Shown: positions 7,961 through 26,312, counted from the stretch's first letter. The stretch is DNA of 64,000 nt from Candidatus Methanomethylophilaceae archaeon (GCA_944320495.1 CALUHR010000013.1:124001-188000); one strand, 5' to 3'. The notes: generated by a model not told the origin, from the letters alone. A program made the numbers and translations.

Positions 7961-7966
7961 ACCGAA

Positions 7967-7992
7967 CGGGGCCTCCGCATCGGACGGCCCCG
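7967..7992. terminator. Hairpin between convergent genes
   Basis: CGGGGCC (7967-7973) and GGCCCCG (7986-7992) form a 7-bp stem with a 12-base loop, six bases after the PP2C stop and ahead of the convergent ATPase stop. There is no T-run. Placement suggests an end-of-transcript structure serving both directions. Confidence 0.4.
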
Positions 7993-8031
7993 CCACACCC
8001 TTCCCGGATGACCGGACGCGTATCCCTCGGA

Positions 8032-10041: not shown

Positions 10042-10728
10042 TCATGCCTCCGCCAGCCTCTCCCTCGCCTCGGCGAAGGGATCGAACCTCACCAGCTCGA
10101 ACCCGACCCTGCGGTTCACCGCACCGATCTCGCCCCTGCACTCCCTCAGGTCCGCGCTGGACGCTCTGGACAGCATGCCGAAGAACCTAGCGTAGAAGAC
10201 GTCCAGCATGCCGCGGTACGTCACCAGCAGCCCCTCCAGGTCCGCCGAGCGGAGGTACCTCCGCTGGTCGGCGCTCCACATCTGGTCGGAACCGCACCTG
10301 CGGGTGAAGACCACCGCCCCTGTCCCCGGATCCACCTCCAAGGGCATCATGTCGACGTGCACCACGTAGTTCCTCAGATTGACCATCAGGGACGCCTCGA
10401 ATCCGAGGGACGACCTCTTGAGGTCCCGGAACTCCGCATCGACGCCGCAGCGCTTGGCGCTGACCGCCGCCAGGTTCTTGCAGGCGTACATCCTCGACAG
10501 GAAATCCGAGAGCGTCTGGCACAGTTCCATGGTGGACGATTCGAGGTCCCGGTAGCTGCTCCTCCCGGACCGTCCCGGTGACCTCATGGATGAGACGAGA
10601 CCGATGAGCTCCGACAGCTTGGAGTCCATCATGCCGTAGCACATGGACATCCTGCGGATGACCTCGTACGTTCTGAAGCTGCTCGATTCCCTGAGCCTCC
10701 TGAGTTCGACGGCGGGTTCCGAGGGCAT
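10042..10728 (-). CDS. Hypothetical helical protein at island left border
   Basis: 228 residues, not recognised. It appears mostly helical and charged, without membrane segments; CGVDAEFRDLKRSSLGFE and LRNYVVHVDMMPLEV are the most distinctive stretches. The start codon (10726-10728) and its upstream region lie inside the left copy of the 56-bp direct repeat, so insertion of the island replaced or duplicated its promoter region. Before the island it would have stood next to the HipA-like gene now at 25149-26312. Confidence 0.6.
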   Translation of the reverse strand: MPSEPAVELRRLRESSSFRTYEVIRRMSMCYGMMDSKLSELIGLVSSMRSPGRSGRSSYRDLESSTMELCQTLSDFLSRMYACKNLAAVSAKRCGVDAEFRDLKRSSLGFEASLMVNLRNYVVHVDMMPLEVDPGTGAVVFTRRCGSDQMWSADQRRYLRSADLEGLLVTYRGMLDVFYARFFGMLSRASSADLRECRGEIGAVNRRVGFELVRFDPFAEARERLAEA

Positions 10729-10772
10729 GCGGATGAATCGCGGGCGGCCGTTATGAGCGTTGGCGACGTAGA
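10717..10772. repeat. Left copy of 56-bp direct repeat flanking the island
   Basis: Bases 10717-10772 match 25063-25118 at 54 of 56 positions in the same orientation (differences at 10744 and 10767). It begins TTCCGAGGGCATGCGGATGA and includes the start codon of the 10042-10728 gene. The two copies bound the AT-richer glycan gene block, as expected for a duplicated target or attachment site, or for a recombination junction. Confidence 0.85.
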
Positions 10773-11003
10773 TTCCGTAGGTCTAGTGGGATGACGTATG
10801 GTCGCCTGAAATCCCCGATCCTGCCCTCCAGCAGACTAGTTATCGTCAATGCACGGCCGAATTTGAGGTACATGAGGACACCGTCACAGCCCTATGGCGC
10901 CAGCTCAAGCTTGCCTGTATATTTTGATTATACCGACATGATGCCGCCATAACCTGGATACGGACCATGCCAGAATCATGAATCGTTAATGAAGTCCCTG
11001 CCA
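10773..11003. other. Left island margin, no convincing gene
   Basis: The 231 bases after the left repeat hold no gene I can name. On the minus strand a short frame (10751-10873, 40 residues, ATG to TAA inside the repeat) reads MYLKFGRALTITSLLEGRIG and has some coding look; just upstream its frame is closed by a TAG. It may be the tail of a gene broken when the island formed. Confidence 0.35.
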
Positions 11004-12104
11004 TCATGATAAACAGAGAGATAGGGTGAAAAACAGAACCAATGTGATCATGAACGACGCCGAGTTGCAGAGAACTATCTCAAAAACACTGCGATATTGG
11101 TATTCGGAGTACAGGAACTGCTTGAAAATCAAGGAGATCCTGCGCCGTTTAATGCATTGGACTGTACAACCTATATCCTCCACATAAGAAAGAAGAGCAA
11201 TAGTCAGTTCGCTTAAACCAGAGATTTTGCGGAAACGAACTAATGTCTCAAGGAGAACAGACAGAGTGAAATCCGATATCACAGCCAAGAATGCAATCAT
11301 GACGCAGAGTGGATCCGATGTCGCAAAAGACAGGATTGCACCTAACACCATCAATAGGATGTGTACGGGGACCTTGTTTATCCTGGGAATTGTTTTGTTC
11401 GGGTACTTTGATATGAGCTTGGCATCGGCCTTCCCGTAATTGTATAGTCTCCCAATCACGTCCCTCGGGTTGTCCCATGTTTTGTTTGAGTGGTATACTA
11501 TGGCATGACGGGCAGATGCTATGGTATATCCCGCCTCGTTCAACCTGACGCCTATATCGACGTCCTCCCCTCCCGGCTTATTCGGAAACGATTCATCGAA
11601 ACCTCCTATCTCCTCCAGGACCGCCTTTCTTATGGAAAAATTCGCAGTAGGGCCCCAAGGCACGGCGTCAACCTCGTTGGGGAGGGAAAATGCAATCATC
11701 CAGGGAGATCCACGAATTGTCCTGAAGAATCTGGTGTTCTCACCCTCCAATGTAATTGGCCCGCATGCGGCACCGATGTGACTCCCCTCGTATGAGGTCC
11801 AATGCGCCATTATCGCCCTTTTATCTAGAACACAGTCGGAGTCACAGTAGTATAGGAGCTCATACTTGGCATATTTCGCCGCAAGATTGCGCTTGATGGC
11901 CACCGACTCTCTTGCATAGTAATACCTGTACCCGAATTCCGAACACATCGATTCAATGATTCTAGCATCGTTCGTTTTGGAATTGTCTACGACAACGACC
12001 TCCCACGGCATGTCCTTGTCTGCGTCTAGTATGCTTTCGAACAATCTCCTGAGAAGAGCTATGCGACCGCAACAAACCACTAGGATGCTCACTCCATCCA
12101 TCAT
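11004..12104 (-). CDS. GT2 glycosyltransferase with C-terminal membrane helices
   Basis: 366 residues. GT-A fold signs: SILVVCCGRIALLRRL at the N-terminus, metal-binding CDSDC (DxD) near residue 93, ANFSIRK and GGEDVDIGVRL near 180 (acceptor/catalytic acidic pair), then YHSNKTW. The last 130 residues contain hydrophobic helices. Size and layout match the two tandem GT2 genes at 17542-19789, so the three look like paralogues. It follows the UbiA gene with a one-base gap and ends the minus-strand half of the island. Donor and acceptor are unknown; a UDP-sugar and a lipid-linked glycan are likely. Confidence 0.82.
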   Translation of the reverse strand: MMDGVSILVVCCGRIALLRRLFESILDADKDMPWEVVVVDNSKTNDARIIESMCSEFGYRYYYARESVAIKRNLAAKYAKYELLYYCDSDCVLDKRAIMAHWTSYEGSHIGAACGPITLEGENTRFFRTIRGSPWMIAFSLPNEVDAVPWGPTANFSIRKAVLEEIGGFDESFPNKPGGEDVDIGVRLNEAGYTIASARHAIVYHSNKTWDNPRDVIGRLYNYGKADAKLISKYPNKTIPRINKVPVHILLMVLGAILSFATSDPLCVMIAFLAVISDFTLSVLLETLVRFRKISGLSELTIALLSYVEDIGCTVQCIKRRRISLIFKQFLYSEYQYRSVFEIVLCNSASFMITLVLFFTLSLCLS

Positions 12105-12105
12105 A

Positions 12106-13920
12106 TCACATCATGAAGACAAGTGCACAGATTACGAATGAAAACGAACCAAGAGCCATACTCAGGCATGTGCATACAGTTCTCCTGACAATCTCCTTCT
12201 CATCGAAAGAGTAGAGCCTCAGTCTGAGGATAGAATCCAATCCAAATCCACGCAGAAATCTAATCCTTGCAATTTTACAAGATAGATTGCGATACATGAT
12301 CAACACGCATACGATCCTTGTAACAACCAACAACAGGAGGGATGCTGATGCCCAAAGTCTGATAGCCCCGTCTGCAAGGATAAAAAGAGCCAGCAGAACA
12401 ACAGCAACGGACAGGAACGCTGGAAATCTGTGCAGAGAAACCTCTGGCACAGCCCTGCAGATGGATGCGGCCTGCATGCCCCATAGCCGCTCCACAGCCT
12501 TCTCATACTCCTGGGGAACTCCGATCAGTGATGCGCTTTTATCGGAGCAAATATGCCTCCATCCGCTTACTTTGGCAATAACGTCTAGAGGTGTGCCGAA
12601 TCCCGCTCTAAGAACGTCCTCGGTCCGAACTATGTAGAGCATCCCCGGCTTGTAGAATTCTTCCATCGACAAGGAAAGTGACTCAGATATATCCTGAAAA
12701 AAATGGGATGTATCCATCCGGAGAGTGAGTCTGGCACATTCCCCCTGTTCGATTGTAGAAAGTACGTCACTCGACCTGACAGAACATCTTAGGGGACTTA
12801 TCACCATCATGTCGCATTTCAGAGATTCCAACGAGCGAATTGTCCCCTCGTCTGTCAGTTCAGGCTCCACTCCAACAAAGATACAACGTCCGATTCTGAG
12901 ACCGTTCTCATTGATGTAGCGATTCAGACGCCCGGAACGCCACATCATCATCGAAACCTTTGCATAACCTGCGACTGCAGAGAGTGCTTTGAAAAACGTG
13001 ACTGACCCGAATAGAAACACGGGAACCAAATATGCCGCCCAAATGGGATCGACATGAATCATGGAAACTAAAATCGCCAATGGAAGAAAAATTACGAAAG
13101 TTGGCGTCAGCGGAAGATAAGTATAATCGAAAAACGGCCACAAACCAGAACGCACGATGGCGCGAAGGGTGAACAGCTCAACCGCCAGCGAGGTCATGAG
13201 AATGACGAGATTGATTGGCCACCCTGACGTTGGCAGAATCATCACAATGCATGATGTCGCCAACCATTCCACGACTATGCATATGTAGATTCCCCGTTTG
13301 GAAGCGATCTGATGAGTGCCGAAGAAAGTTTTCGTTTTTGAAGCAACATCGTTGTCATGGTCCATCGACTGGTGTATGAGGATGTAACGGACTCCCAGAG
13401 CAAAACCCAGGATCATCGTCGCCGAAAATATCACCGGATTCACCGGGATCATGAGAGGCAATACAGTCAATGGACTGCAGCGTTGGGCATATGACGAGAC
13501 AATGACCCCCATCAACCCACGCTCCTTGAAACGGATCGGCCTCAGAGAATATGACGTACTCAGGAATAGATTCGTAACAACGACGATGGTCATTGGTATG
13601 CTCGGAAAAACAAATATCGGAATCAAAACCGGAACTGTCGCTAACAAGAGACTGCAGTATCTAAAACACATCGATCTGGTCGAGAACATATTCGATTTAC
13701 CGACTGCACGATCCTGCTCCACGTCGCTGAAATCATTGGCGACATAACCCGAAATCATAATTGCGACAGAAAGAACTGAGAAACACACAAATGGCAGCAC
13801 GGACTCTTCCGGAGTCACTCCGGACACCAGAAAGACCGCGATTGCCCCCAGCATTAGGAATGGAATCTTGGATCCAGCCCAATCATCCATTCTTAAACTT
13901 CTGATTCTCATAGAAGTCAT
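12106..13920 (-). CDS. UbiA-family prenyltransferase fused to an unknown C-terminal domain
   Basis: About 604 residues, twice the usual UbiA length. The N-terminal half (to about 320) has nine or so membrane helices and both Asp-rich motifs of the family: NDFSDVEQD and DHDNDVASKTKT. It resembles the branch that loads sugars or rings onto polyprenyl phosphate. After it come about 150 soluble residues (RCIFVGVEPELTDEG to EYEKAVERLWGMQ) that I do not recognise, and then two to four further helices. Starts at 13932 (TTG), 13920, 13911 and 13890 are possible; 13920 keeps the LRMDDW segment that UbiA proteins need. It overlaps the end of the radical SAM gene by 38 bases. Confidence 0.78.
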   Translation of the reverse strand: MTSMRIRSLRMDDWAGSKIPFLMLGAIAVFLVSGVTPEESVLPFVCFSVLSVAIMISGYVANDFSDVEQDRAVGKSNMFSTRSMCFRYCSLLLATVPVLIPIFVFPSIPMTIVVVTNLFLSTSYSLRPIRFKERGLMGVIVSSYAQRCSPLTVLPLMIPVNPVIFSATMILGFALGVRYILIHQSMDHDNDVASKTKTFFGTHQIASKRGIYICIVVEWLATSCIVMILPTSGWPINLVILMTSLAVELFTLRAIVRSGLWPFFDYTYLPLTPTFVIFLPLAILVSMIHVDPIWAAYLVPVFLFGSVTFFKALSAVAGYAKVSMMMWRSGRLNRYINENGLRIGRCIFVGVEPELTDEGTIRSLESLKCDMMVISPLRCSVRSSDVLSTIEQGECARLTLRMDTSHFFQDISESLSLSMEEFYKPGMLYIVRTEDVLRAGFGTPLDVIAKVSGWRHICSDKSASLIGVPQEYEKAVERLWGMQAASICRAVPEVSLHRFPAFLSVAVVLLALFILADGAIRLWASASLLLLVVTRIVCVLIMYRNLSCKIARIRFLRGFGLDSILRLRLYSFDEKEIVRRTVCTCLSMALGSFSFVICALVFMM

Positions 13921-15250
13921 CTGCTCTGTCAACCTTCAGAAGTTCCAGACCGTTGTTGGTGATGAACATGCAGTTGTCACAGATCCTAGGCAGCTTTCCA
14001 CTGAAGAACAGTTCCCTCAACCTTACGAGAGGATTCCCGTTCCACACCTCGGTGAAATCACGATCGAGATTGCCAACGTTATGAAGAACGTCTATGCAGC
14101 ATGCGATGACCTCTCCCTTTGCCGTGACCATGGAGGTGTCCCAGATCCGGTCGCAGATGCCGTTGCAAGTGCTTCTGGATTTCTGGGGATTCAGGTCAAA
14201 TCCGTACAAGCTCCATCTCTCGCTCATTGGCGAGCATCTATCTATCTGGCGCGGTGGATCCCACGGCTCCGAACCTATGCGTATAATGTCTAAATCGTAG
14301 TCTGAATCCGAAAGAGACAAGAAATAATCAGGATAGATCAGCTCTATGCCTACAGCTTCTGCTACCTGAATTGCACGTTTTAGATGCGTTTTTAGAGCTG
14401 ATGGATACAGCACAGGGTCATCATATTTGTTCAAAGCATTGTCATTGATTCCCACTCTTGTGAAAATAACCCGTTGGAATCCGTTCTCGACAGCGTATTC
14501 GACTATACGCTCTAACTCAGCGATGTTGTGTCTCATCACCACTGTCGCCAACGTCATGAACGTTTGTGGTGAAGCCGACCTAAACCGACGGATGTTTTCT
14601 GTCACACGCTCCAGGTTCAGACCCTTACGTATGATGGAGTACATCCTCGGATCTACAGAATCCAACGAAACCGTCAATGTTTCAAATAAATCATGATGAG
14701 CCAGCACTGCATCCGGAAGTATTGACATGTTCGTGTTTGTGGACACATGGATGTGATACTTGGAATACAGATCTAAACGGGAACCCAGAGCAGGATCCAT
14801 GAACGGCTCCCCATTGCCATGTAGGACAATAGTGCGAAGATATGGCATCACAGATTCGAGACACGATACGAAATCATCCGTGAGATGGGATGCCCCGATA
14901 TTACGACGATAGTAGTGTACACACATTATACACTCTGCATTGCAAAATGACGTGTGCTCCAACTGAAGGGTCATTGGATAATGGCGGAATACAGACCTGC
15001 CTTCGACCAGATCGTGGCAGGCAAGTGCCTCATTGAGATCTTTGACGGTGTCGTAATCACCTAGCTCAAGACACGACAAGATCGTAGATTCTATGGCATC
15101 GGCATCGGAGAGATCCACATTCACACGGCCGTTTTCATAAGCAATGGGCGATTGACCCCGACGTATCATATCTGGCAACCAGTCTTTCATTGATTCGTGA
15201 ACAGGCGATTGACAGGTCACTTCCTGGATGTCATTGCCCGAAGACACCAC
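13883..15250 (-). CDS. Radical SAM/SPASM-type enzyme
   Basis: 455 residues. The 4Fe-4S/SAM motif FCNAECIMC (CX3CX2C) is near residue 100; a C-terminal Cys-rich part (CNGICDRIWD, IACCID, CDNCMF) matches a SPASM or twitch domain binding further clusters. The N-terminal 80 residues are family-specific. Start GTG 15250, one base after the nucleotidyltransferase stop; the end overlaps the UbiA gene. In glycan clusters such enzymes modify sugars or attach unusual groups; the substrate here cannot be told. A second enzyme of the class is at 22763-23701. Confidence 0.82.
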   Translation of the reverse strand: MVSSGNDIQEVTCQSPVHESMKDWLPDMIRRGQSPIAYENGRVNVDLSDADAIESTILSCLELGDYDTVKDLNEALACHDLVEGRSVFRHYPMTLQLEHTSFCNAECIMCVHYYRRNIGASHLTDDFVSCLESVMPYLRTIVLHGNGEPFMDPALGSRLDLYSKYHIHVSTNTNMSILPDAVLAHHDLFETLTVSLDSVDPRMYSIIRKGLNLERVTENIRRFRSASPQTFMTLATVVMRHNIAELERIVEYAVENGFQRVIFTRVGINDNALNKYDDPVLYPSALKTHLKRAIQVAEAVGIELIYPDYFLSLSDSDYDLDIIRIGSEPWDPPRQIDRCSPMSERWSLYGFDLNPQKSRSTCNGICDRIWDTSMVTAKGEVIACCIDVLHNVGNLDRDFTEVWNGNPLVRLRELFFSGKLPRICDNCMFITNNGLELLKVDRADDFYENQKFKNG

Positions 15251-15251
15251 A

Positions 15252-16121
15252 TCACACCCACAGATGCTGAGGGTAGGTTCCTTTCACCTTCTCTTCGTTA
15301 ATATGCTTCAAAAGAGCATCGTAATCATCGCGATACGTAACTCCCATCCATGATGCGTTCGTATCCACACAGTTCATCTTGATCTCCCCCAGAGATAGCA
15401 ACGAATCCAGAACAGTGGATAGCACGAACTCCTGTCCATCCTGCTCGTGATCCTTGATGAACATCTGAAGCCTCTGCCTTAACATAGTGAAAATCGAGGG
15501 ATTGAGCACGAACAGGTTCATGGAGACTGGATTACTCTCGCATATGCGCATTACTTTATCTGAATTCAAAGGACGACAAGCAATTCCATCCGAATCGACC
15601 CACACTTCCGACTCGATGATCCTGCGAATATGGCCGGAGTCTACCTTGCAAATGCCACGTTTCACCGTCCCGTGTGGAGAGAGTGTATTTCCGACTCTGT
15701 AGCATATGCAGCCACATTCTCCACTGCCTGAAAGCGGAGAGTTGAGCATTCCGGTAATAAGGGCACCCCTACCATAGAAATCATCAGCATTGACGACCAG
15801 AAACGGCTCCTCCAGGTGTCCTTCGCAGCAGAGAAGGGCAAATCCGGTACCAGATGGCAATACATGAACAGACATCTCATTTTCAGGATATTCCTGAATG
15901 ACGAATTCCAATGGAATCCTGGCACCAATTCTCGCCTTCAGAGCCTCGAAGAACTTCAGATGGCTCTTTTGAATAACTATGATGACTTTGCTGTAACCGC
16001 AAAGAATTGCATCATATATGGAATAGTCGATTAAGAAATTCCCGTCATCATCAACTGGTTCATACTGCTTCAACCCCCCGTATCTCTTACCGAGGCCGGC
16101 TGCCAGTATCACCATTTGCAT
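15252..16121 (-). CDS. Sugar-phosphate nucleotidyltransferase
   Basis: 289 residues. The N-terminus MQMVILAAGLGKRYGGLKQY is the nucleotide-binding signature (LAAGxGxRxGG...K) of NTP-transferases; VNADDFYG near residue 108 supplies the metal-binding Asp. Such enzymes make NDP-sugars from sugar 1-phosphates. It is the first gene of the minus-strand operon of the island, with a TATA-like box (AATTAATAATGG, 16143-16154) about 27 bases before ATG 16121, consistent with a leaderless mRNA. It is not a close match to GlmU- or ManC-type proteins, so the sugar is uncertain. Confidence 0.82.
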   Translation of the reverse strand: MQMVILAAGLGKRYGGLKQYEPVDDDGNFLIDYSIYDAILCGYSKVIIVIQKSHLKFFEALKARIGARIPLEFVIQEYPENEMSVHVLPSGTGFALLCCEGHLEEPFLVVNADDFYGRGALITGMLNSPLSGSGECGCICYRVGNTLSPHGTVKRGICKVDSGHIRRIIESEVWVDSDGIACRPLNSDKVMRICESNPVSMNLFVLNPSIFTMLRQRLQMFIKDHEQDGQEFVLSTVLDSLLSLGEIKMNCVDTNASWMGVTYRDDYDALLKHINEEKVKGTYPQHLWV

Positions 16122-16231
16122 AATTGGGACATTGACGTACCATTATTAATTTTAACTATTTTAGTATAAATTCAATTTTGAATTTGATAATAATATTTAA
16201 GACCATTATCCAGATTGAACTATGAACGGTT
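16122..16231. promoter_or_regulatory. Divergent promoter region of the island operons
   Basis: A 110-base, very AT-rich gap between divergent genes. Minus-strand TATA-like box at about 16143-16154 for the nucleotidyltransferase; plus-strand box TAATATTTAAG at 16191-16201, about 27 bases ahead of 16224 and so giving a leader of a few bases before ATG 16232. The two halves of the island are therefore probably expressed together from here. Confidence 0.55.
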
Positions 16232-17545
16232 ATGAAGACTGTGAGCGAGACCAAGATCGGATTCGTCGGACTGGGATACGTCGGCACGGTGAGTGCTGCA
16301 GGTTTCGCGATTCTGGGATTTGATGTTTACGGATACGATCTGGATGAAAGGAAAGTGACCAGTCTTATAAACAGACAGCCGCTCATCTACGAATCTGGAC
16401 TCCAGGAAGTTCTGTTAGACGCCGATATTTCATCAAGAATGCATTTCGTGTATGATATCGACAACCTGGTTGATAATGCGGACGTCATCTTCGTAACAGT
16501 TGGGACACCGGAATCTATTGACGGCTCCTGCAACACATCTTTTGTCACACAAGCTCTTGAATCCATACTGTCACGTCTCACAGAGAGAGGTCTGGACAGC
16601 ATTGTTGTGGTAAAAAGCACCGTGCCCGTAGGATTCACACAAGAATTCATCGATTCTCTTGGAAACGACGAAGGAATCTGTCGGAACATATGCTTCAGTC
16701 CAGAATTTCTCAGAGAAGGATCCGCTCTAGATGACTTTCTCAATCCGAGCAGGGTGGTGATTGGCACAACTGATGCAAGCATTTTCGAGACTGTTGCCCA
16801 CCTATACGGAAAATATGAATCGAAAGGAGTTCCGATTCTAATGATGGATCCGACCTCTGCCGAGCTAGTGAAGTATGCCTCTAACTCGTTTCTGGCAGCG
16901 AAGGTCGCTCTGATTAATGAATTCGCTGACCTTTCTCACGCTGTTGGTGCGAACATTGATACCGTGTCGAGAGCGATAGGAATGGACCCACGGATCGGTA
17001 ACGAGTTCATGCGCGCATCGGTCGGATTCGGTGGGAGTTGCTTTCCGAAAGATGTGTCTGAGATTGACCATAGATCCAATAGTCTTGGAATACGCCACCC
17101 CCTCATCGGCTCAATTCTTGAATCAAACAGAGCCCACATAGAGAGGATGACGGATCGCATTGACAGATGTGCGAAACATCAAGGAATCAGAACGATTTCA
17201 ATCCTGGGCCTGGCTTTCAAACCTGACTCGGATGATATCCGCGAATCCCCTGCCATTGAAATCGCATCGAAACTTCTTGAAAGAGGATATGTTGTGAAAG
17301 CATACGACCCACTGGCAGGACCCAATGCACTTCTAGCCCTGCCAAAGGGGATTGAGATACTCGACAATGCATACGACTGCATGAATGAGGCGGAGATGGT
17401 AACCATCCTAACGGGATGGCGTTCCTTCAGAGAGCTAAAATTCTGCAGGTCTGGAAGTGTGCGGATCGTTATGGATCTCGCCAATGTCCTGGACGGTGAA
17501 ACGATCGGTGCCATGGGGCTCGAATACCACAATATAACGGAGTGA
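16232..17545 (+). CDS. UDP-glucose/GDP-mannose-type 6-dehydrogenase
   Basis: 437 residues, the usual family length. KIGFVGLGYVG is the NAD-binding loop, VVKSTVPVGFT and EFLREGSALDDFLNP are family blocks, and GFGGSCFPKD near residue 265 carries the catalytic Cys. The reaction is two-step NAD-dependent oxidation of an NDP-hexose at C6 to the uronate. The UDP-glucuronate-decarboxylase-like gene downstream makes UDP-glucose the likely substrate. It opens the plus-strand operon; the next start overlaps its stop (GTGA). Confidence 0.9.
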   Translation: MKTVSETKIGFVGLGYVGTVSAAGFAILGFDVYGYDLDERKVTSLINRQPLIYESGLQEVLLDADISSRMHFVYDIDNLVDNADVIFVTVGTPESIDGSCNTSFVTQALESILSRLTERGLDSIVVVKSTVPVGFTQEFIDSLGNDEGICRNICFSPEFLREGSALDDFLNPSRVVIGTTDASIFETVAHLYGKYESKGVPILMMDPTSAELVKYASNSFLAAKVALINEFADLSHAVGANIDTVSRAIGMDPRIGNEFMRASVGFGGSCFPKDVSEIDHRSNSLGIRHPLIGSILESNRAHIERMTDRIDRCAKHQGIRTISILGLAFKPDSDDIRESPAIEIASKLLERGYVVKAYDPLAGPNALLALPKGIEILDNAYDCMNEAEMVTILTGWRSFRELKFCRSGSVRIVMDLANVLDGETIGAMGLEYHNITE

Positions 17546-18678
17546 CGAATACGACCGTTGACTTCTCCATCGTCATACCCACATGGAACAGAAAGGAGTA
17601 CGTTGAACGTCTCCTGAAATCCATCGCAGAGGACAGACAATCCTACACGGGCGGCTCTACAGAGATAATAATCGTAGACAGTAGCGTGGATGAGGAACGC
17701 GACTCCATAATGGAATCCTGCAAAAGGTATGGTGCACGCTATATTGAAGGGCCCGACTCTGTGAGGAAAAAACGCAACATGGGAATCGTGGATTCGCGGT
17801 TCGACCATATCCTCTTCCTAGACTCAGACGTCATAGTGGAGAAGGGACTTCTGGAAGCGCACGCCAGAGTGTACGAAGAGTCCCCATCAGAGAATCTTGG
17901 AGGCACATTCGGCGTAACCGAATTCTATGGAGAAAGGTCATTCATCTGGAAAGTTGTCGAATACACGAACTACACTGTTGCGTTCGATCAGGCTAAGAAA
18001 TACCCCTATGTGAACTGGACGATTGGAAACAACGTTTCTTTCGTAAAGAAATGTCTCGTAGACATAGGTATGTTCGAAGAAAACCTGCCGTTTAAGCTTG
18101 GAGGAGATGATCTCGATCTAAGCTATCGGGTAGTCGCCAGCGGGCATCCGATCAAATGTACGTCAGAGGCAGTGACATATCATTCTCGTGAAACATGGAA
18201 TTCCAGAGATGCCATCAATAACAGGACGAAGAGATGGGGTGCGATGGAGTACTACAACTCGAAACGTCACTGGAATTTGATGAAGAAGACCCTCCCCGGG
18301 CTTCCGATCATGTTCTCTATGGCAACACTGTCCCTTTTGATATCATTCCTAATAACAGAATCAACAGCGTTTCTATGGTCTATCCCTGTGATCGGTATTC
18401 TGACGTTCATAATCGGTTTTGCCTGTGATGCTACTAACAGCCACAGATACAATATCATATACTATGGATTAGCGAAACTCCTCGGTGTAAAATACAGCTA
18501 TTACAAAATCAAAGAGTGCTGGCACAATCATGACTTCGGGCTGATTGGAAGAGTCATGATCTTTGACAAAGGACATGCCATGGCCGAATATTCTGCGAGA
18601 AGCCGTAAAATGGACTGGTTCCTGATATCGTCCGTAGCAGTATTCCTCATAGATTTCCTACTTACAAGGATGGGTTGA
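17542..18678 (+). CDS. GT2 glycosyltransferase with C-terminal membrane helices
   Basis: 378 residues. N-terminal DFSIVIPTWNRKEYVERL, metal-binding FLDSDV near residue 94, GGDDLDLSYRV near 190 and YHSRETW are the GT-A landmarks. Two hydrophobic helices (about 255-300) and a further one at the C-terminus indicate membrane attachment. The GTG start overlaps the TGA of the dehydrogenase. It is a paralogue of the next gene and of 11004-12104. Donor is probably one of the UDP-sugars made by the neighbouring enzymes. Confidence 0.84.
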   Translation: MTNTTVDFSIVIPTWNRKEYVERLLKSIAEDRQSYTGGSTEIIIVDSSVDEERDSIMESCKRYGARYIEGPDSVRKKRNMGIVDSRFDHILFLDSDVIVEKGLLEAHARVYEESPSENLGGTFGVTEFYGERSFIWKVVEYTNYTVAFDQAKKYPYVNWTIGNNVSFVKKCLVDIGMFEENLPFKLGGDDLDLSYRVVASGHPIKCTSEAVTYHSRETWNSRDAINNRTKRWGAMEYYNSKRHWNLMKKTLPGLPIMFSMATLSLLISFLITESTAFLWSIPVIGILTFIIGFACDATNSHRYNIIYYGLAKLLGVKYSYYKIKECWHNHDFGLIGRVMIFDKGHAMAEYSARSRKMDWFLISSVAVFLIDFLLTRMG

Positions 18679-18682
18679 CTCC

Positions 18683-19789
18683 ATGGACTTCAGTGTCGTT
18701 ATACCGGCCCGCGGTCGCACGGATCTCCTCAGAACACTGCTGGAGAGCCTGAATACCGCCAGGGGTTTCAATGACGGTGATGTGGAAATCCTGATTCTAG
18801 ACGATAGCGACGAACCGTATTCGACAGCGATCAAATCCATGTCTACAGGACTCGGTGCAAGCTATATTCGTGCTGAAATGACAGTGGGTGCTAAGAGAAA
18901 TCTCGGTGCCAGAATGTCAAATCACGACATCGTTGTTTTTCTTGATTCAGATGTTCGTGTGTCCGATAATTTCTTCTGCGGATATGAAAGGGTTTTCGCC
19001 GCCAAGGAGATCAACATGGCGATAGGACTTTTGGAGTTCTATGGCGACGAGAGCTGGTACTGGAAGGTTGTCAAGTCCACCCCGTTCGTAAAATGTTTTG
19101 ACATGCCACGGTACATGGACATGCTCCCATGGGGATGTTCCTGCAACATGGCAGTCCGGAGAGACTTCTTCCTTGAACTATCCGGATTCAGCGATGAATT
19201 CCGCGAACCGGCAGGAGAGGATGTTGATCTAGGCCTTAGGGTTAGCAAGCGCCACATTCCAATAGTCCCAGTCAAAGAATCGGTGGCGTTCCATTCCAAC
19301 ACCACCTGGTCAAAGAGACGGGACATGATCCGTCGTGTTTGCATGTACGGGAGAGGGGATGCAGTCCTTGTTGAACGCCATCCTGACTCGACGGTGAGAT
19401 CGGGCCTCCGCCGTTGGATCTTTTTCCTCGCTATCACCATAATCTGCTGTCTTTCGGCAATCGTTTCTGAAAATGCCTGGATGCTTCTGATGATACCGAC
19501 ACTCATTGTTGCCGAACTCCTCGCTGTATCTGCCAAGATATCGGTAAAAACTGAAGATGTTAGCCTGTGTCAGGCACTGGCATCCCAAGAGCTGGTGCTA
19601 CGCAATGAGCTGTCATACATCTTGACCTGCATATCAAGAGGACATCCGGGCAACGTCTTCAGACAGATCGTCACCGTTGAGGGACAGGCATATGACATCT
19701 TGGATTTCATGAGATTCGCCTACCTATTGGACCTTGGTCTGCTGATGCTCCTCTTCATATTCTCGGGATTGGTGATAACATATGCATGA
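18683..19789 (+). CDS. GT2 glycosyltransferase with C-terminal membrane helices
   Basis: 368 residues. DFSVVIPARGRTDLLRTL, FLDSDVRV near residue 94, GEDVDLGLRV near 180 and FHSNTTW define the GT-A domain; two helices at about 240-285 and one at the C-terminus follow. It lies four bases after the preceding paralogue and overlaps the ligase gene by eight bases, so the block is one transcription unit. Tandem duplication with divergence suggests successive sugars of one glycan. Confidence 0.84.
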   Translation: MDFSVVIPARGRTDLLRTLLESLNTARGFNDGDVEILILDDSDEPYSTAIKSMSTGLGASYIRAEMTVGAKRNLGARMSNHDIVVFLDSDVRVSDNFFCGYERVFAAKEINMAIGLLEFYGDESWYWKVVKSTPFVKCFDMPRYMDMLPWGCSCNMAVRRDFFLELSGFSDEFREPAGEDVDLGLRVSKRHIPIVPVKESVAFHSNTTWSKRRDMIRRVCMYGRGDAVLVERHPDSTVRSGLRRWIFFLAITIICCLSAIVSENAWMLLMIPTLIVAELLAVSAKISVKTEDVSLCQALASQELVLRNELSYILTCISRGHPGNVFRQIVTVEGQAYDILDFMRFAYLLDLGLLMLLFIFSGLVITYA

Positions 19790-20972
19790 AGAACAGATGA
19801 AAAAATTCCTCCAGTGCGTAAAGTCGGGTTATTTCAACAATCCTGTCACCATAGAACGTGTAGAACCGTTGAAAGGTCTGTCAGAGCTGTCATATGACGA
19901 CTTTTGTCACATCCCGGTAATGACGAAGAGCGACATAAGATCGACATCCATCGAAACACGCGAACTCGAAAGCGGAAGATGCGTCGGCATATTCTCCAGC
20001 AGCGGATCCACCGGCAAGAGGACATATTATAAGTTCAGCCAAGAGGACCAGGATGTCTTCAATGAGACTGCCAGAGAGCTGTTCGGCAGACTCGGCGTGA
20101 ATTCCGACGATGTCTTCGCTGTTTGTGCCCCCGTAGGGGAGGGGATAATGGCCCACTGCATGATATGGGAGGCCATTGCCAACTGCTCGGGGTATACTGT
20201 ATGCCCAACCCCATCGCCTTCGAATGTGATGGAAATGTTGGACAACATCCCTGTAACGATAATAGCGGGATTGCCGTCTGTCTTGGACTTCTCGCTTGAA
20301 TCAGAGAAGGGGACACAGAGCCATAAGACGCATCTTCGCATGATGATCTCTGGCGGGCACTATATGTCCGAAGCGAAGCGCGATCGCATCGAGTCAGTCT
20401 GGGGGATAGAATGGTACAATGCGTATGGAATCAGCGAATTCTTCGGTCCGTTGATGTGCGAGTGCCGCTGTAAAAACGGATTCCATTACAACCAGAAATG
20501 TCTCTTCGTCGAAATTGTAGATGTCCATTCCAAAGAACCTATCGAGGGACCGGGGAAAATCGGCATAATGTTGCTCACACCTCTATGGAAGAAAGGATCC
20601 CCTCTGATCAGATACTGGACTGACGACTACGCCGAATGGATAGACGAACCCTGTACTTGCGGTGCATTCGGACGCAGAATCAGGATACTTGGCAGACAAT
20701 GTGATGTGATTTGCATCAATGGGAGATACATCTTCCCCAACGACATCGAAGAGATTCTCGTCAGGAACAGCAGAAACACCTTGGCATACTTCGACATCGA
20801 AGATGATGATATCGTCTGCTTCCTCCCGGAAATTAACGGATCATGCGGAGAGCTTGAGAGACTCTTTGACACAGAGATTCACTTCAAAACAAAGAGCGAA
20901 TGGCCCAATATCAACCGCCCGAAGCCATATTACTTCAGCAAAACATTGAAACAGAGGCTGAGTGACAGATGA
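19782..20972 (+). CDS. PaaK/CapK-like AMP-forming ligase
   Basis: 396 residues. FSSSGSTGKRTYYKF near residue 70 is the phosphate-binding P-loop of adenylate-forming ligases, and AYGISEFFGP near 210 is the second core motif; GRRIRILGRQCDVICINGRY near 300 leads into the C-terminal lid. Cys pairs (CECRCKNG, CTCG) resemble the structural Cys of the phenylacetate-CoA ligase family. Homologues in capsule clusters (CapK) are thought to activate a carboxylic acid for transfer to a sugar. The substrate is unknown. It starts within the last codons of the GT2 gene and its stop overlaps the epimerase start. Confidence 0.8.
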   Translation: MHEEQMKKFLQCVKSGYFNNPVTIERVEPLKGLSELSYDDFCHIPVMTKSDIRSTSIETRELESGRCVGIFSSSGSTGKRTYYKFSQEDQDVFNETARELFGRLGVNSDDVFAVCAPVGEGIMAHCMIWEAIANCSGYTVCPTPSPSNVMEMLDNIPVTIIAGLPSVLDFSLESEKGTQSHKTHLRMMISGGHYMSEAKRDRIESVWGIEWYNAYGISEFFGPLMCECRCKNGFHYNQKCLFVEIVDVHSKEPIEGPGKIGIMLLTPLWKKGSPLIRYWTDDYAEWIDEPCTCGAFGRRIRILGRQCDVICINGRYIFPNDIEEILVRNSRNTLAYFDIEDDDIVCFLPEINGSCGELERLFDTEIHFKTKSEWPNINRPKPYYFSKTLKQRLSDR

Positions 20973-21949
20973 GTCGCATACTTGTCACCGGAGGACTTGG
21001 ATTCATCGGAACCAACCTGACCCTCAGGCTATTGAAATCAGGTGACGAAGTGGTGGTCATAGATAATGCGTATACCTCCAGCCTGGAGCGTATTTCTGCA
21101 TTCGAAGAATACGATGGATTCGAATTCATAAACCAAGATGTAACAACGCCTTTTGATGAACTGAACGTTGATGGCATCTATCATCTGGCCGCACCTGCAT
21201 CTCCGATAAAATACTCCAGAAATCCGGCGTATACCGTCAGAACCATCGTGGAAGGCGCGTTCAATGCATTGGAATGCGCGAGGAACAATGATTGCCGCAT
21301 ACTGGTTGCGTCCACCAGCGAGATTTATGGTGAGTGTGAAAAACACCCTCAGAGCGAAACGTACAACGGCAATGTTTGCACCATGTCCACAAGAGCCTGT
21401 TACGATGAGGCCAAAAGATGCGCAGAGACGGTCTCATTCTGCTATCATGAGACATATGGCGTAAACGTCGTCTGCCCCCGTATTTTCAACACGTATGGGC
21501 CATACATGCAGCTTGATGACGGCCGTGTGATGACCTCATTCATCAGTTCGCTTCTGAAATCAGAACCCCTGAGGATTTTTGGAGATGGGGAACAGACGAG
21601 ATCGTTCTGCTACATCGACGACCTGCTCGACGGTTTAGAACTTGTATTCTCATCCTCACTGAAAGGCAAAGCCATCAACATCGGCAATGATTTCGAGATA
21701 TCAATAAACAAATTGGCGGACATATTCGAAGAGATCTGCGGAAGGAGCTTTGAAAGAATCTATGAGAAACGCATGGACCACGAACCGATGAACAGGTGTC
21801 CCGACCTTAGCCTTATCCGCAACACACTAGGTTACAGACCGAGGATGAACATCCGCGACGGCCTGACTCGTATGGTTGAGTTCTACAGGCGATTCGATGG
21901 AAGTCACAGTAGTCATCCCAACACTGAACGAAGAAAAGCATATTCGTGA
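20969..21949 (+). CDS. NAD-dependent sugar epimerase/dehydratase, UDP-glucuronate decarboxylase-like
   Basis: 326 residues, extended SDR fold. NAD loop GGLGFIG; the block PASPIKYSRNPAYTVRT, then STSEIYGECEKHPQ, and RACYDEAKRCAE with the Tyr/Lys pair are typical of UDP-xylose synthase (UXS), which oxidises and decarboxylates UDP-glucuronate. With the dehydrogenase at 16232 this gives UDP-glucose to UDP-glucuronate to UDP-xylose. Closely related 4-epimerases share much of this sequence, so the product is probable rather than certain. The GT2 gene begins 53 bases before its stop. Confidence 0.82.
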   Translation: MSRILVTGGLGFIGTNLTLRLLKSGDEVVVIDNAYTSSLERISAFEEYDGFEFINQDVTTPFDELNVDGIYHLAAPASPIKYSRNPAYTVRTIVEGAFNALECARNNDCRILVASTSEIYGECEKHPQSETYNGNVCTMSTRACYDEAKRCAETVSFCYHETYGVNVVCPRIFNTYGPYMQLDDGRVMTSFISSLLKSEPLRIFGDGEQTRSFCYIDDLLDGLELVFSSSLKGKAINIGNDFEISINKLADIFEEICGRSFERIYEKRMDHEPMNRCPDLSLIRNTLGYRPRMNIRDGLTRMVEFYRRFDGSHSSHPNTERRKAYS

Positions 21950-22757
21950 GTGCCTAGAGAGTGTGTGGTCCAATACTGTGAAACCGATTGAGATCCTTGT
22001 CTGCGATGGAGGATCCGATGATGAAACTGTTCGCATCGCTGAATCTCTAGGGGCTAAAGTCCTTATCAACAAGGACCGGACAGCTGCAACCGGCCGCAAC
22101 CTTGGCATAGCCAATGCCTCCGGTGACATAATCGCGTTCACCGACGGGGACTGCAAAGTCGATGTACATTGGATCGAATCTTTGCTGAAGGAGTTCGAAG
22201 ATTGCAATGTAGATGGCGTTGGTGGCAAAACCATTCCTGCTGATACAGATAATGAAATTGAGAGATTCTGGGGGCATATATCTCTCGAAGTCATCATGTC
22301 GTTTCCGGATCATGATTATACTGTAACCAATCGGACTCTTAATGATGCGTTTATTACTGCCAATTGTTCCTATAGGACTGATTTTCTTAGAACAATTGGC
22401 GGTTTTGACCCTTGGTTCGGCAACAACGCAGAGGATGTTGACCTATCGTGGCGTGCACTTAGTCACGGTGCGAAGCTCAGATATTGCCCTCATGCCGTGG
22501 TCATCGCTCATTCTCCTCAGACAATACGCGAAATGTGCCAGAAGAGCTTCCGCAATGGGGTCTCCTCCACCAAACTCCAGAAAGTACACAGCGGAGAGGA
22601 ATCCAGCCTCGATATCGAACTGTATCACACCCTGGTCAGATCGCTCATTGGGACGTTTAAGATGAACAAACAAGACCTTCTGCTGTCTGTCGAATTGATG
22701 TGTCACATTTGGGGAAAGATATCGAGCAGCAGAAAACTGCACTACCGTAACTGGTGA
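21897..22757 (+). CDS. GT2 glycosyltransferase, short form
   Basis: 286 residues from ATG 21897, chosen because MEVTVVIPTLNEEKHIREC is the usual GT2 N-terminus; the upstream in-frame start at 21876 would add residues lying in the epimerase end. FTDGDCKVD near residue 80 is the metal site, GGFDPWFGNNAEDVDLSWRA near 170 the acceptor region. There is no long hydrophobic C-terminus, unlike the other GT2 proteins here. The 53-base overlap with the preceding gene and four-base overlap with the alternative start of the next indicate coupled translation. Confidence 0.83.
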   Translation: MEVTVVIPTLNEEKHIRECLESVWSNTVKPIEILVCDGGSDDETVRIAESLGAKVLINKDRTAATGRNLGIANASGDIIAFTDGDCKVDVHWIESLLKEFEDCNVDGVGGKTIPADTDNEIERFWGHISLEVIMSFPDHDYTVTNRTLNDAFITANCSYRTDFLRTIGGFDPWFGNNAEDVDLSWRALSHGAKLRYCPHAVVIAHSPQTIREMCQKSFRNGVSSTKLQKVHSGEESSLDIELYHTLVRSLIGTFKMNKQDLLLSVELMCHIWGKISSSRKLHYRNW

Positions 22758-22762
22758 TCGGG

Positions 22763-23701
22763 ATGGATGAGATTATACTGGAAATCAGCGGGAATTGCAA
22801 TCTCGATTGCAATATGTGTGGATACGGAAGATCCAAAACGAAAGAAAAAAAGCTCATGACCCGCAAGATGTTCGAACATGTGATTGAACACTACTGCGAG
22901 GGCATACGGACCCTTCGGTTGAACGCGTGTGGAGAGAGTACTATACACCCTGAATTTAAAGAACTCCTATCCTACGCAAGACAGACACTGCCTGACGTTG
23001 ATATCAAACTATTCTCCAACATCAATTATCGGGATCCGTCCATCTCGAAAGCCATAGTAGATGCGGATGTGCAACTGATCATGTCCATAGACTCTGTGGA
23101 TCGTGATCGTATAGGGATCATAAGACGCGGATCGGACTATGACACCATTATGCGCAACTTCGATTATCTGTCCAGAAATCTGAAATTGAAGGCTGTTATG
23201 TTTACTCTGCAGACCAGAAACTTCGATGAGCTGATGGAGGTCGGAAGGTTCTCGCTAGATCACGATTGCCACTTCTTCTGCAACATGGTTAATGGTGAAC
23301 CGCACCTCTCGGAGTTGGAATCGCTGCTGATGAACGAAGACAATCTGATGAAGCTTAGATCTGAATTCGAAGAACTTCATCGTCTCGCGGTTTCAAAAGG
23401 GCTTAGAGCATTTCTGCCAGACCACGTCGGAACTGTGCACATACCGGCAAATGAAACAGACGACCTTATGCTAAAAACCACTGGGCAGGGCCGTTGTAAT
23501 CGTTTCCAATCCGAACTATGCATACATTATGATGGCACGGTGACACCTTGCGGAATGTTCAACCCCTATATCTACGGGAATGTCATGGATTACACTCGCG
23601 AATCTCTGCTGGAATCGGAAAGATATCGTCTTTTCCAGAAAAACCAGGCCAATGATGATTACTGCAAAAACTGCGGATGCATGCTGGTTCAGGAATTATG
23701 A
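22763..23701 (+). CDS. Radical SAM/SPASM-type enzyme
   Basis: 312 residues from ATG 22763, which has GGTGAT four bases upstream; GTG 22754 is the alternative. GNCNLDCNMC near the N-terminus is the CX3CX2C cluster motif, and GESTIHPEF is the family GE motif. The C-terminal CNRFQSELCIHYDGTVTPC, YCKNCGC forms a SPASM-like set of Cys residues. It belongs to the same broad group as 13883-15250 but is shorter. Neighbours indicate sugar or lipid modification. Its last codon overlaps the next start (ATGA). Confidence 0.82.
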   Translation: MDEIILEISGNCNLDCNMCGYGRSKTKEKKLMTRKMFEHVIEHYCEGIRTLRLNACGESTIHPEFKELLSYARQTLPDVDIKLFSNINYRDPSISKAIVDADVQLIMSIDSVDRDRIGIIRRGSDYDTIMRNFDYLSRNLKLKAVMFTLQTRNFDELMEVGRFSLDHDCHFFCNMVNGEPHLSELESLLMNEDNLMKLRSEFEELHRLAVSKGLRAFLPDHVGTVHIPANETDDLMLKTTGQGRCNRFQSELCIHYDGTVTPCGMFNPYIYGNVMDYTRESLLESERYRLFQKNQANDDYCKNCGCMLVQEL

Positions 23702-25431
23702 CCGTGACGCCTAGATCAAATGATGGCCTTTCGATAATCATCATTACACATAACAATGAATATATTGTAAGAGTTGTGGAGGCCGTATTGGAACAGATCT
23801 CACCGGTAGACGAGGTCATACTTGTGAATGATCATTCGGATGAAAGATTCCTAAGCGGCATCCCCACACATCCATCATTGAAGATTGTAACACCGGTGAT
23901 GGAGGGCAACAGGAGCCATAATAGGAATATCGGTGCTGAACTCTCATCCCGCGGAATCCTAGTCTTTATCGATGGGGATGTCCTAATCCAAGAAGGATCG
24001 CTATCTTGTATACGCGATACGGGTAAACATACACCCCTCACCTTCAATGTCATGGCACAGTCAATCACTCTGGAACAGTTGTGTATGCTGAATCAGAGAA
24101 CGGACATTATGAACGCCGTACTGAACAAGAGATTCGAGTATCTGGATCACCTCGACGGTATGCGTGATTGGCGCTTGGATGATTCACCCTACGGTCCTGA
24201 CATGGAGGATTGGTGCGTGTTCTACACATTGTTCTGTTCCATCCCAAAACATCTCTTCGTTCAGGCAGGAGGATTCGACGAATCCATTCACGGATGGGGC
24301 TGTGAAGACGTGGATCTTGGATTCAGACTGAAACGGATGGGAGCGAACATACATTTCATCGAAACAATTCGTGCTATACACATTCCACACCCCCGTAACA
24401 ACTACATTCAGAACTTGAATGGACGCAGGAATCTCTACCATATGCTCCAAAGATACAGGGATATCGACATTGAACGCGTGATAGCATTCGGCACATCATG
24501 TATGGTCAGATCTGCTTTATCGAACATACTCGAGAAATGCTCATCCATGGATGATACGAGTATAATACCGTCAGATTGTGATTTGATTCTCACATTTCGT
24601 TCTGGAAATCCAGTCTTGATAGTACGCGATAAAGACAGAAAAACCGAATGGCCATCAATGGGTCTAGCTATACCGTTTGAGAACACCCACTTTCATCAAG
24701 CGTACATTTCTGAGAATTACTTCCTGCTCCCTGAAGGATTATATTGCAGGGTTCTTCAGGAACTGTGTCGCGTTTCGAAGTATGTGATTACAAGATGTCC
24801 CGATAGAAAAAACAGACCGACATTCGATAGATGGGTTCATGACTCTTTGAAACACGCATACTGCTACACAGATATCATCCATCTATCCAATCAAATCAGG
24901 GATTTTTCATTCCAAAACAACGGAGAGTACATCGAAGTTTCATATCAGCCTGGATTTGATAATAGTCGCGAACCTAACATGTTGAATGATCGATTCGATG
25001 TCCCATCCATAACAAGAGTGGAACAGGTTGAGATTCAATGGCATATGAACCTCAATTCGAAATTCCGAGGGCATGCGGATGAATCGCGGACGGCCGTTAT
25101 GAGCGTTGGCGATGTAGAATCGGTATCACGACGCAGAAGACGGAGCCGTCACCTTCTAGCCACCCGTGCCTCCAGACCGTCGATCCTGGACCCCAGAAGA
25201 TCCACTATCGCCGCATCCCTCCCGGTCCTGCGGAACATCTCCACCTTGGAGAACACCTCGCAGGCCCTGTCGACCCCCTCCCTCAGGGCGTCGAAGTCGA
25301 TCCATCCGACATCGCGGACCAGCCTCATCTGCTCCGACCAGTGCTCGGAGAAGGGCTTGCACCCCTTACCCGCATCTGCGACGATCGAACCCTCCCAGCA
25401 GTCGAACCCCATGCTGGAGCCGCTGTCATAG
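23698..25431 (+). CDS. GT2 glycosyltransferase with its C-terminus lost at the island border
   Basis: N-terminal half is a GT-A enzyme: SIIIITHNNEYIVRVVEA, FIDGDV near residue 91, GWGCEDVDLGFRL near 200 (the GWGxEDxDL of galactosyltransferase-type C-terminal domains). Residues about 260-455 are an unknown domain with island codon use. From 25063 the frame enters the right repeat and then reads the complementary strand of the HipA-like gene, giving an Arg/Ser/Pro-rich tail of 120 residues that is certainly not native. The original stop has been lost. ATG 23698 overlaps the previous stop. Enzyme activity may remain if the catalytic half folds alone. Confidence 0.72.
   Translation: MTVTPRSNDGLSIIIITHNNEYIVRVVEAVLEQISPVDEVILVNDHSDERFLSGIPTHPSLKIVTPVMEGNRSHNRNIGAELSSRGILVFIDGDVLIQEGSLSCIRDTGKHTPLTFNVMAQSITLEQLCMLNQRTDIMNAVLNKRFEYLDHLDGMRDWRLDDSPYGPDMEDWCVFYTLFCSIPKHLFVQAGGFDESIHGWGCEDVDLGFRLKRMGANIHFIETIRAIHIPHPRNNYIQNLNGRRNLYHMLQRYRDIDIERVIAFGTSCMVRSALSNILEKCSSMDDTSIIPSDCDLILTFRSGNPVLIVRDKDRKTEWPSMGLAIPFENTHFHQAYISENYFLLPEGLYCRVLQELCRVSKYVITRCPDRKNRPTFDRWVHDSLKHAYCYTDIIHLSNQIRDFSFQNNGEYIEVSYQPGFDNSREPNMLNDRFDVPSITRVEQVEIQWHMNLNSKFRGHADESRTAVMSVGDVESVSRRRRRSRHLLATRASRPSILDPRRSTIAASLPVLRNISTLENTSQALSTPSLRASKSIHPTSRTSLICSDQCSEKGLHPLPASATIEPSQQSNPMLEPLS
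25063..25118. repeat. Right copy of 56-bp direct repeat flanking the island
   Basis: Same orientation as 10717-10772, differing at two of 56 bases (25090 and 25113). It lies inside the 3' part of the last glycosyltransferase frame and 31 bases before the stop of the HipA-like gene. After it, G/C-rich codon use returns. Confidence 0.85.
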
Positions 25432-26312
25432 ACCGGTGCGGGGGACACCCATTCCAGGGAATGCGCGTCGCGGATTATGCCGAAGTTGTTGAGATGGCGG
25501 TCGCCGTTGGCGATGACATAGTCCAGGACCATCATCCGGTCCAGTGCCGGGACGGCGTCGATGCCGTGACGGGCGCAGCACGAGACGTAGTGGTCGTAGT
25601 CCGGCACTCCCGCATCATGGACCTCCGAACGCATGACCTGGTACGCCGGGACGAGCTCCGTGTCCGCGGTCACGAAGTCCTCGCATACGCTGCACGGGGT
25701 GCCTCCATAGTCTATCACGGAGTAATCGACATGATCCATACCGAGCGAATCCGCTATGATGCCCGCAGCCACCTCGTTGAACGGCTCCTGCATGTATGGC
25801 TTCGTTCCAGATTTGATGAGACAGCGCCTTCCGTCCATGATCTTCCAACGCTTGGTCAGCATACCGTCAGAAGCAGAGTCCGGCGATGAGAAATCCATGG
25901 AACCCGTCCAGACCTCCCTCCCGAAAAGAAGATCTCCAACATCGTCCGAGAAGGGATTATCGAAGAAATTCACCTCGGACCATTCGAGATCCGAACCAAC
26001 CGGACGTATCCAGTAGTGGTCCGATAGGCTCAATCCCAATGATTTCCTCAGGAGTAATTCAGTGTTGGAGATGTCGAGCTTCTCGAGTACATGCTTGATT
26101 CCGCTACGCGACATAGGAATCGCTCTGGAGGACCACCATCTCTGAAGCCTCTCCGGACGTACGATATCATCTATCACAGTGCCCACAGGCATGTGTGCCA
26201 CATCGTACACACTCCCCATGTGCACCATGACCCCTGTGACATACTCGAGATCGATGGAGGCGACCGTGACATCCCCGTGCATCAGCTCGAACAGCATGCA
26301 ATCATGTCGCAT
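25149..26312 (-). CDS. HipA-like protein kinase, no HipB partner
   Basis: 387 residues. The C-terminal half has the HipA catalytic motif VIANGDRHLNNFG near residue 270 and PVYDSGSSMGFD near 305 (metal-binding Asp region), with CLIKSG...EPFNEVAA near 165 as the ATP-binding part. The N-terminal 120 residues differ from bacterial HipA. HipA kinases phosphorylate a tRNA synthetase and cause dormancy when unchecked by HipB; no HipB-like gene is next to it, so it may be controlled otherwise or be a HipA-related enzyme of other function. Its 3' end is overlapped antisense by the runaway glycosyltransferase frame. Before the island it was probably adjacent to 10042-10728. Confidence 0.82.
   Translation of the reverse strand: MRHDCMLFELMHGDVTVASIDLEYVTGVMVHMGSVYDVAHMPVGTVIDDIVRPERLQRWWSSRAIPMSRSGIKHVLEKLDISNTELLLRKSLGLSLSDHYWIRPVGSDLEWSEVNFFDNPFSDDVGDLLFGREVWTGSMDFSSPDSASDGMLTKRWKIMDGRRCLIKSGTKPYMQEPFNEVAAGIIADSLGMDHVDYSVIDYGGTPCSVCEDFVTADTELVPAYQVMRSEVHDAGVPDYDHYVSCCARHGIDAVPALDRMMVLDYVIANGDRHLNNFGIIRDAHSLEWVSPAPVYDSGSSMGFDCWEGSIVADAGKGCKPFSEHWSEQMRLVRDVGWIDFDALREGVDRACEVFSKVEMFRRTGRDAAIVDLLGSRIDGLEARVARR

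What the first reader, a model, noticed from the sequence alone, without database searches (positions are those of the whole stretch)
10717..25118. Island bounded by a 54/56-bp direct repeat
A long near-perfect repeat at both edges, an abrupt drop in G+C, and a broken gene at one edge show a 14.3-kb insertion. The repeat includes the start region of one native gene, so it is probably a duplicated target/attachment site. No recombinase is inside.
Basis: seen in the sequence. Interest (0 to 1): 0.8.

Follow-up and report, generated by a model that had tools for sequence, protein, structure and literature searches.

The report
Foreign sugar-coat gene island, archaeon
A methane-producing archaeon carries a 14-kb block of foreign genes, probably for building surface sugars; it landed beside the start of a native gene and duplicated about 56 bases there, and a sister species shows the site without the block.

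Summary
The direct repeat (10717-10772 / 25063-25118, 54/56 identical; 59/63 when extended) occurs only twice in the genome and flanks 14.3 kb of DNA with GC ~0.47 and GC3 0.47-0.60, against GC ~0.63 and GC3 mostly 0.84-0.94 outside. The sister species G008 (93-96% nt) has the empty site: one repeat copy between ORF228 and hypB. The island encodes a probable surface-glycan locus: five GT2 glycosyltransferases, nucleotide-sugar dehydrogenase, epimerase/dehydratase, nucleotidyltransferase-like protein, UbiA-like membrane protein, CapK/PaaK-like ligase, two radical SAM/SPASM proteins. No integrase.

The 'attachment site' reading is not supported. The repeat is the upstream region and first four codons of ORF228, not a tRNA. 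The broken right-hand gene was cut by an IS630-family element, whose first ~105 bp remain (24958-25062) and end exactly where the right repeat begins. Beyond the left repeat lies ~100 bp of higher GC with a weak hipA-tail match.

Most likely this is an old, inactive insertion made by homology-assisted or illegitimate recombination that duplicated ~56 bp of target. Insertion with one native repeat copy is shown; the mechanism is inferred. It is a known kind of event (flexible surface-glycan island) in an uncultured Methanomassiliicoccales lineage. Donor unknown.

The parts
10042..10728 (-). ORF228, native gene next to the left repeat; lineage-restricted, invariant R-N-x-x-x-H motif (HEPN-like, inferred)
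   Evidence: 99% identical in G008, 59-72% in five other congeners; no Pfam or PADLOC match
10717..10779 (.). Left repeat copy; core 10717-10772. Upstream region, ATG and first four codons of ORF228
   Evidence: follows G008 up to ~10772, then departs
10780..10895 (-). Possible remnant of a diverged hipA 3' end (tentative)
   Evidence: frame GVLMYLKFGRALTITSLLEGRIG; E 0.045 in 310 bp; about 1% of control windows score as high; GC 0.535 for 10780-10880, between native and island
11004..12104 (-). GT2 glycosyltransferase, 366 aa, membrane segments
   Evidence: PF00535 2.8e-13
12106..13932 (-). UbiA-like polytopic membrane protein, 608 aa
   Evidence: PF01040 2.3e-08, just under the Pfam cut-off; about 12 hydrophobic segments
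13883..15250 (-). Radical SAM/SPASM protein, 455 aa; true start may be later (overlaps next gene)
   Evidence: PF04055 and PF13186; CxxxCxxC at residue 103
15252..16121 (-). Sugar nucleotidyltransferase-like protein, 289 aa
   Evidence: weak: PF12804 3.4e-05 below cut-off; TIGR03992 2.3e-07
16232..17545 (+). UDP-glucose/nucleotide-sugar dehydrogenase, 437 aa
   Evidence: TIGR03026 2.6e-112, above cut-off; three Pfam domains
17542..18678 (+). GT2 glycosyltransferase, 378 aa
   Evidence: PF13641 3e-15
18683..19789 (+). GT2 glycosyltransferase, 368 aa
   Evidence: PF00535 1e-12
19782..20972 (+). CapK/PaaK-like AMP-dependent ligase, 396 aa
   Evidence: PF00501 7e-12; PaaK-type models 5e-33 to 1e-30, below their cut-offs
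20969..21949 (+). NDP-sugar epimerase/4,6-dehydratase, 326 aa
   Evidence: PF01370 8.3e-49
21876..22757 (+). GT2 glycosyltransferase, 293 aa (start may be later; overlaps previous gene)
   Evidence: PF00535 4.9e-28
22754..23701 (+). Radical SAM/SPASM protein, 315 aa
   Evidence: PF04055, PF13186
23677..24957 (+). GT2 glycosyltransferase gene, 3' end lost; the frame reads on by chance to 25431 through the IS remnant, the repeat and antisense to hipA
   Evidence: PF10111 1.2e-10
24958..25062 (+). Remnant: 5' terminal inverted repeat and first ~15 transposase codons of an IS630-family element, cut off at the right repeat
   Evidence: 82% over 74 nt to a sequence at two G015 contig ends; matches the end of a 1.1-kb element in G045
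25063..25125 (.). Right repeat copy; core 25063-25118
   Evidence: follows G008 on the hipA side
25149..26312 (-). HipA-like kinase gene, native side of the right junction; lost to a short remnant in G008
   Evidence: PF07804 1.5e-08; 36-50% identical relatives in congeners; remnant in G008

Best explanation
The interval is a horizontally acquired gene cluster, probably for a surface polysaccharide or glycolipid, inserted between ORF228 and hipA in an uncultured Methanomassiliicoccales archaeon. The insertion left about 56 bp of the target, the ORF228 upstream region and start, in two copies. Shown: foreign composition, the empty site with one repeat copy in the sister species, the truncated IS630-type end at the right junction, and no integrase in the island. 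Inferred: the DNA entered by homology-assisted or illegitimate recombination, not by site-specific integration. One side would have paired in the ORF228 upstream region, with a donor that had related sequence there (hence the hipA-like tail beyond the left copy). The other end, broken inside an IS630 element, would have been joined about 56 bp back, so that the stretch between was copied; a single crossover by a circularised fragment gives the same result. The island has no mobility gene of its own now. A surface-glycan function is inferred from gene content.
For: Two repeat copies genome-wide and one in G008; joined flanks align to G008 at 166/174; five further congeners lack the island. GC3 0.47-0.60 against mostly 0.84-0.94. 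Island genes: five GT2, sugar dehydrogenase, epimerase, CapK-like ligase and others. IS630 end cut exactly at the right repeat (transposase DDE_3). Left copy departs from G008 just after the core and has a weak hipA-tail match beyond it. One-sided and single-crossover events that duplicate target DNA are documented in E. coli (PMC3240628).
Against: The hipA-tail match at the left edge is weak: 165 of 1440 native windows score as high at DNA level. Published homology-facilitated illegitimate insertions usually delete target sequence, and the duplications seen in that study were 109-950 bp. No donor was found. The two cores still match at 54/56, which an attachment site would also show.
Confidence: 0.55

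Rival explanations
1. The repeat is attL/attR of an integrative element whose recombinase acts in trans or was lost; the 56-bp core is the attachment site at the 5' end of ORF228.
For: Near-identical direct repeat at both ends and a single copy at the empty site. Five tyrosine-recombinase genes lie elsewhere in the genome.
Against: No integrase in the island; target is not a tRNA; the right end is a truncated insertion sequence directly at the repeat; only one island uses the core in this genome.
Confidence: 0.2
2. A longer target duplication (ORF228 and more, or tandem hipA-ORF228 units) once flanked the island. The right-hand copy was then trimmed by a deletion starting inside the IS630 element, leaving only the 56-63 bp seen now.
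For: The right repeat starts exactly where the IS remnant stops, which looks like a deletion junction. The left side may hold a second, diverged hipA end. Two hipA genes lie in tandem on contig C8.
Against: G008 shows a single ORF228 and a single hipA remnant. The hipA-like tail at the left is much more diverged than the repeat itself.
Confidence: 0.17
3. The island is a transposon or an IS-bounded composite element, and the repeat is its target-site duplication.
For: An IS630-type end lies at the right edge.
Against: IS630 elements duplicate only TA (family knowledge; TA flanks the G045 copy). No matching end was seen at the left edge: the IS query hits the window only at the right edge at better than chance.
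Confidence: 0.03
4. Assembly artefact: the repeat joined two unrelated stretches.
For: The genome is a draft of 14 contigs, 90.6% complete, and named relatives at this locus are metagenome bins.
Against: The copies differ at positions 28 and 51, so the longest exact shared word is 27 nt; contig C13 is 552 kb long; both flanks align with the sister species in the native order.
Confidence: 0.03

Closest known systems
Flexible genomic islands for exposed cell structures (surface glycans), as in PMC4033161
   Same: Foreign-composition cluster of glycosyltransferases and sugar-nucleotide enzymes, present in one lineage and absent in its sister, without its own integrase.
   Different: Here it is an addition at a site that is otherwise empty, not a replacement of an equivalent cluster, and its junctions carry a short duplication and a severed insertion sequence.
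Integrase-driven genomic island / integrative element with attL and attR
   Same: Direct repeat at both ends, single copy at the empty site.
   Different: No recombinase, no tRNA target, one end is a truncated IS.
Homology-facilitated illegitimate recombination and single-crossover insertion (PMC3240628)
   Same: One junction lies in sequence shared with the recipient, the other has no visible homology; target DNA is duplicated.
   Different: Published illegitimate events usually delete target DNA, and the duplications reported there were 109-950 bp; homology past the left junction is only weakly supported here.
IS630-family insertion sequence
   Same: Terminal inverted repeat and first transposase codons present at 24958-25062.
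   Different: Only about 105 bp of roughly 1.1 kb remain; not an active element.

Membership tests
Genomic island (horizontally acquired) | Composition and codon use unlike the host | tested here: met
   GC ~0.47 against ~0.63; GC3 0.47-0.60 against mostly 0.84-0.94
Genomic island (horizontally acquired) | Absent from the same site in close relatives | tested here: met
   Empty site in G008; five other congeners lack it
Integrative element with att sites | Direct repeat flanking the element, one copy at the empty site | tested here: met
Integrative element with att sites | Recombinase gene within the element | tested here: not met
   None among the island genes
Integrative element with att sites | tRNA or comparable conserved attachment gene | tested here: not met
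   tRNAs only at 46.6 and 56.2 kb; ORF228 found in 7 of 60 genomes searched, own included
Integrative element with att sites | Excision and circularisation | not testable with these tools
   Needs reads or an experiment
Flexible surface-glycan island | Genes for glycosyl transfer and sugar-nucleotide synthesis | tested here: met
Flexible surface-glycan island | Product is a surface glycan | not testable with these tools
   Inferred from gene content
Homology-assisted illegitimate insertion | Homology to recipient-type DNA continuing past one junction | tested here: inconclusive
   hipA-tail-like sequence at 10780-10895, weak
IS630-family element (right-edge remnant) | Terminal inverted repeat of an element with a DDE_3 transposase | tested here: met

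The most novel reading that the evidence does not exclude
The upstream region and start of ORF228 (a possible HEPN-type gene beside hipA) is a recurrent landing site used by an as yet unrecognised recombinase acting in trans, which moves glycan cassettes among Methanomassiliicoccales and regenerates a 56-bp core.
Probability: 0.07. Interest if true: 0.6.

Novelty: new member of a known kind. Interest (0 to 1): 0.3.

Why it matters
It documents, with an empty-site comparison, how an uncultured methanogen gained what looks like a whole surface-glycan locus without an obvious integrase. It also shows that a long direct repeat at both ends of an island need not be an attachment site: here it is native gene-start DNA, and one end is a severed insertion sequence. 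Surface glycans are often involved in contact with viruses and hosts, but the function here is untested.

Tried and rejected
tRNA target: the only tRNAs in the window are at 46.6 and 56.2 kb. Transposon target duplication: IS630 duplicates TA only (family knowledge; TA seen in G045), so it cannot make 56 bp. Donor search: no DNA match to the island interior in 31 congeners except the IS end; the UbiA-like protein has only weak matches in 147 genomes of the order and none confirmed in genome contigs; the radical SAM protein has none at E<=1e-20 outside this genome in 390 genomes of the phylum, none in viral contigs and only distant plasmid matches, 21-29% in the rows listed; the CapK-like protein has relatives only at 36% or less in the rows listed. 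Left-edge DNA search against the genus gave only weak, short hits beyond the repeat itself. hipA-tail remnant at the left edge: kept as tentative only, because native windows often match the tail as well at DNA level (165 of 1440). No structure prediction was run.

Full report
Observation. The repeat is real. A search of the whole assembly (1.77 Mb, 14 contigs; the window is contig C13 124001-188000) finds these two copies and nothing else above chance. Between them GC falls to about 0.47 and GC3 to 0.47-0.60, against 0.84-0.94 in most flanking genes tested, 0.79 in the gene at 29298-30503 and 0.74 in hipA. Named relatives at this locus are uncultured Methanomassiliicoccales / Methanomethylophilaceae bins, so the host very probably belongs to that order of methanogens.

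What the repeat is. On the minus strand it covers the upstream region, the ATG (10728) and the first four codons of ORF228. The upstream block can be aligned in six congeners; that it holds the promoter is an inference. It is not a tRNA.

Empty site. In congener G008, whose flanks are 93-96% identical, ORF228 is followed by one repeat copy, a short remnant of hipA, and hypB, without the 14.3 kb. The window's two flanks joined at the repeat align to it at 166 of 174 positions. G021, G014, G015, G016 and G023 also have ORF228 beside hypB without the island. The left copy follows G008 up to about 10772 and then departs; the right copy follows G008 on the hipA side. The 56-bp stretch was therefore duplicated when the island entered, or was brought in as a matching end.

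Contents. Two divergent gene runs start at about 16.1-16.2 kb. Minus strand: a nucleotidyltransferase-like protein, a radical SAM/SPASM protein, a UbiA-like membrane protein and a GT2 glycosyltransferase. Plus strand: a nucleotide-sugar dehydrogenase, two GT2 enzymes, a PaaK/CapK-like ligase, a sugar epimerase/dehydratase, a GT2 enzyme, a second radical SAM/SPASM protein and a GT2 gene that is broken at its end. Gene content of this kind is typical of surface-polysaccharide loci (family knowledge); the product is not known. No recombinase was found.

Right edge. The last GT2 gene is not broken by the repeat. At about 24958 it runs into 105 bp that match the 5' end of an insertion sequence: 82% over 74 nt to a sequence at the ends of two G015 contigs with different flanks, and the inverted-repeat end of a ~1.1-kb element in G045. 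The G045 element has a transposase in two overlapping frames with HTH and DDE_3 domains, which fits IS630. In the window the element is cut off exactly where the right repeat begins, and its start codon is already changed.

Left edge. Between the left repeat and the first island gene (10780-11003) GC declines from 0.59 to 0.49. On the minus strand the frame GVLMYLKFGRALTITSLLEGRIG resembles the last residues of HipA in order and position. The match is weak (E 0.045 in 310 bp; about 1% of control windows equal it at protein level), so it is tentative. G016 has a comparable remnant in the same place.

Mechanism. An integrase element predicts a recombinase, usually a tRNA or similar target, and a proper element terminus at each end. 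The first two were tested and not met, and the third fails at the right edge. An IS630 target duplication cannot be 56 bp. An insertion with one homologous and one illegitimate junction would explain the duplication, the departure of the left copy from G008 just after the core, the truncated IS at the other junction and the missing integrase. An E. coli study that looked for such one-sided events found mostly target duplications, which it put down to single crossover of a partly degraded circle; those were 109-950 bp long (PMC3240628). Replacement of surface-structure islands by homologous recombination is described for aquatic prokaryotes including an archaeon (PMC4033161). Genomic islands of deviating GC have been noted in this order (PMC4153887). 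I put 0.55 on homology-assisted or illegitimate insertion, 0.2 on a cryptic attachment site and 0.17 on a longer duplication trimmed by an IS-linked deletion.

Age and donor. The two cores differ at 2 of 56 positions, and the window and G008 differ by 4-7% in the flanks, so the insertion is probably not very recent, but the numbers are too small for a date. No close relative of the tested island proteins was found in the order or phylum samples, in viral contigs or in plasmids. The donor is unknown.

Verdict. The attachment-site reading is not supported. This is an ordinary kind of event, a flexible surface-glycan island, in a little-studied host, with an instructive pair of junctions.

Noticed in passing
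window 10042-10728 (-): ORF228 has an invariant R-N-Y-V-V-H stretch in all seven homologues aligned, the pattern of HEPN ribonuclease motifs; it lies next to a HipA-like gene, so the two may form a stress or defence unit. No profile match supports it.
   Followed up: partly
L051 6607-10202 (G008): The sister species has its own ~3.6-kb insertion on the other side of ORF228, with a SIR2-domain protein that matches candidate defence models, so the ORF228 neighbourhood looks like a variable spot.
   Followed up: partly
window 606-9468: A run of genes with a 1221-aa protein ending in a Ser/Thr-type kinase domain, a PP2C phosphatase and an archaeal ATPase; shared with G008 from 3432 on (its fetched stretch starts there) and not seen beside ORF228 in the stretches of five other congeners. 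The ATPase matches a candidate defence family, PDC-S27.
   Followed up: partly
window 55000-57000: GC dips to 0.58 beside tRNA-Lys(ctt) at 56240-56316, a possible integration spot.
   Followed up: no
L031 4437-5546 and 6083-7186 (own genome, contig C8): Two further HipA-like genes in tandem, 45% and 37% identical to the one at 25149-26312.
   Followed up: no
L054, L055, L056: In G015, G014 and G016 a small open reading frame with a likely membrane segment sits between ORF228 and hypB, where the window has the island and hipA.
   Followed up: no
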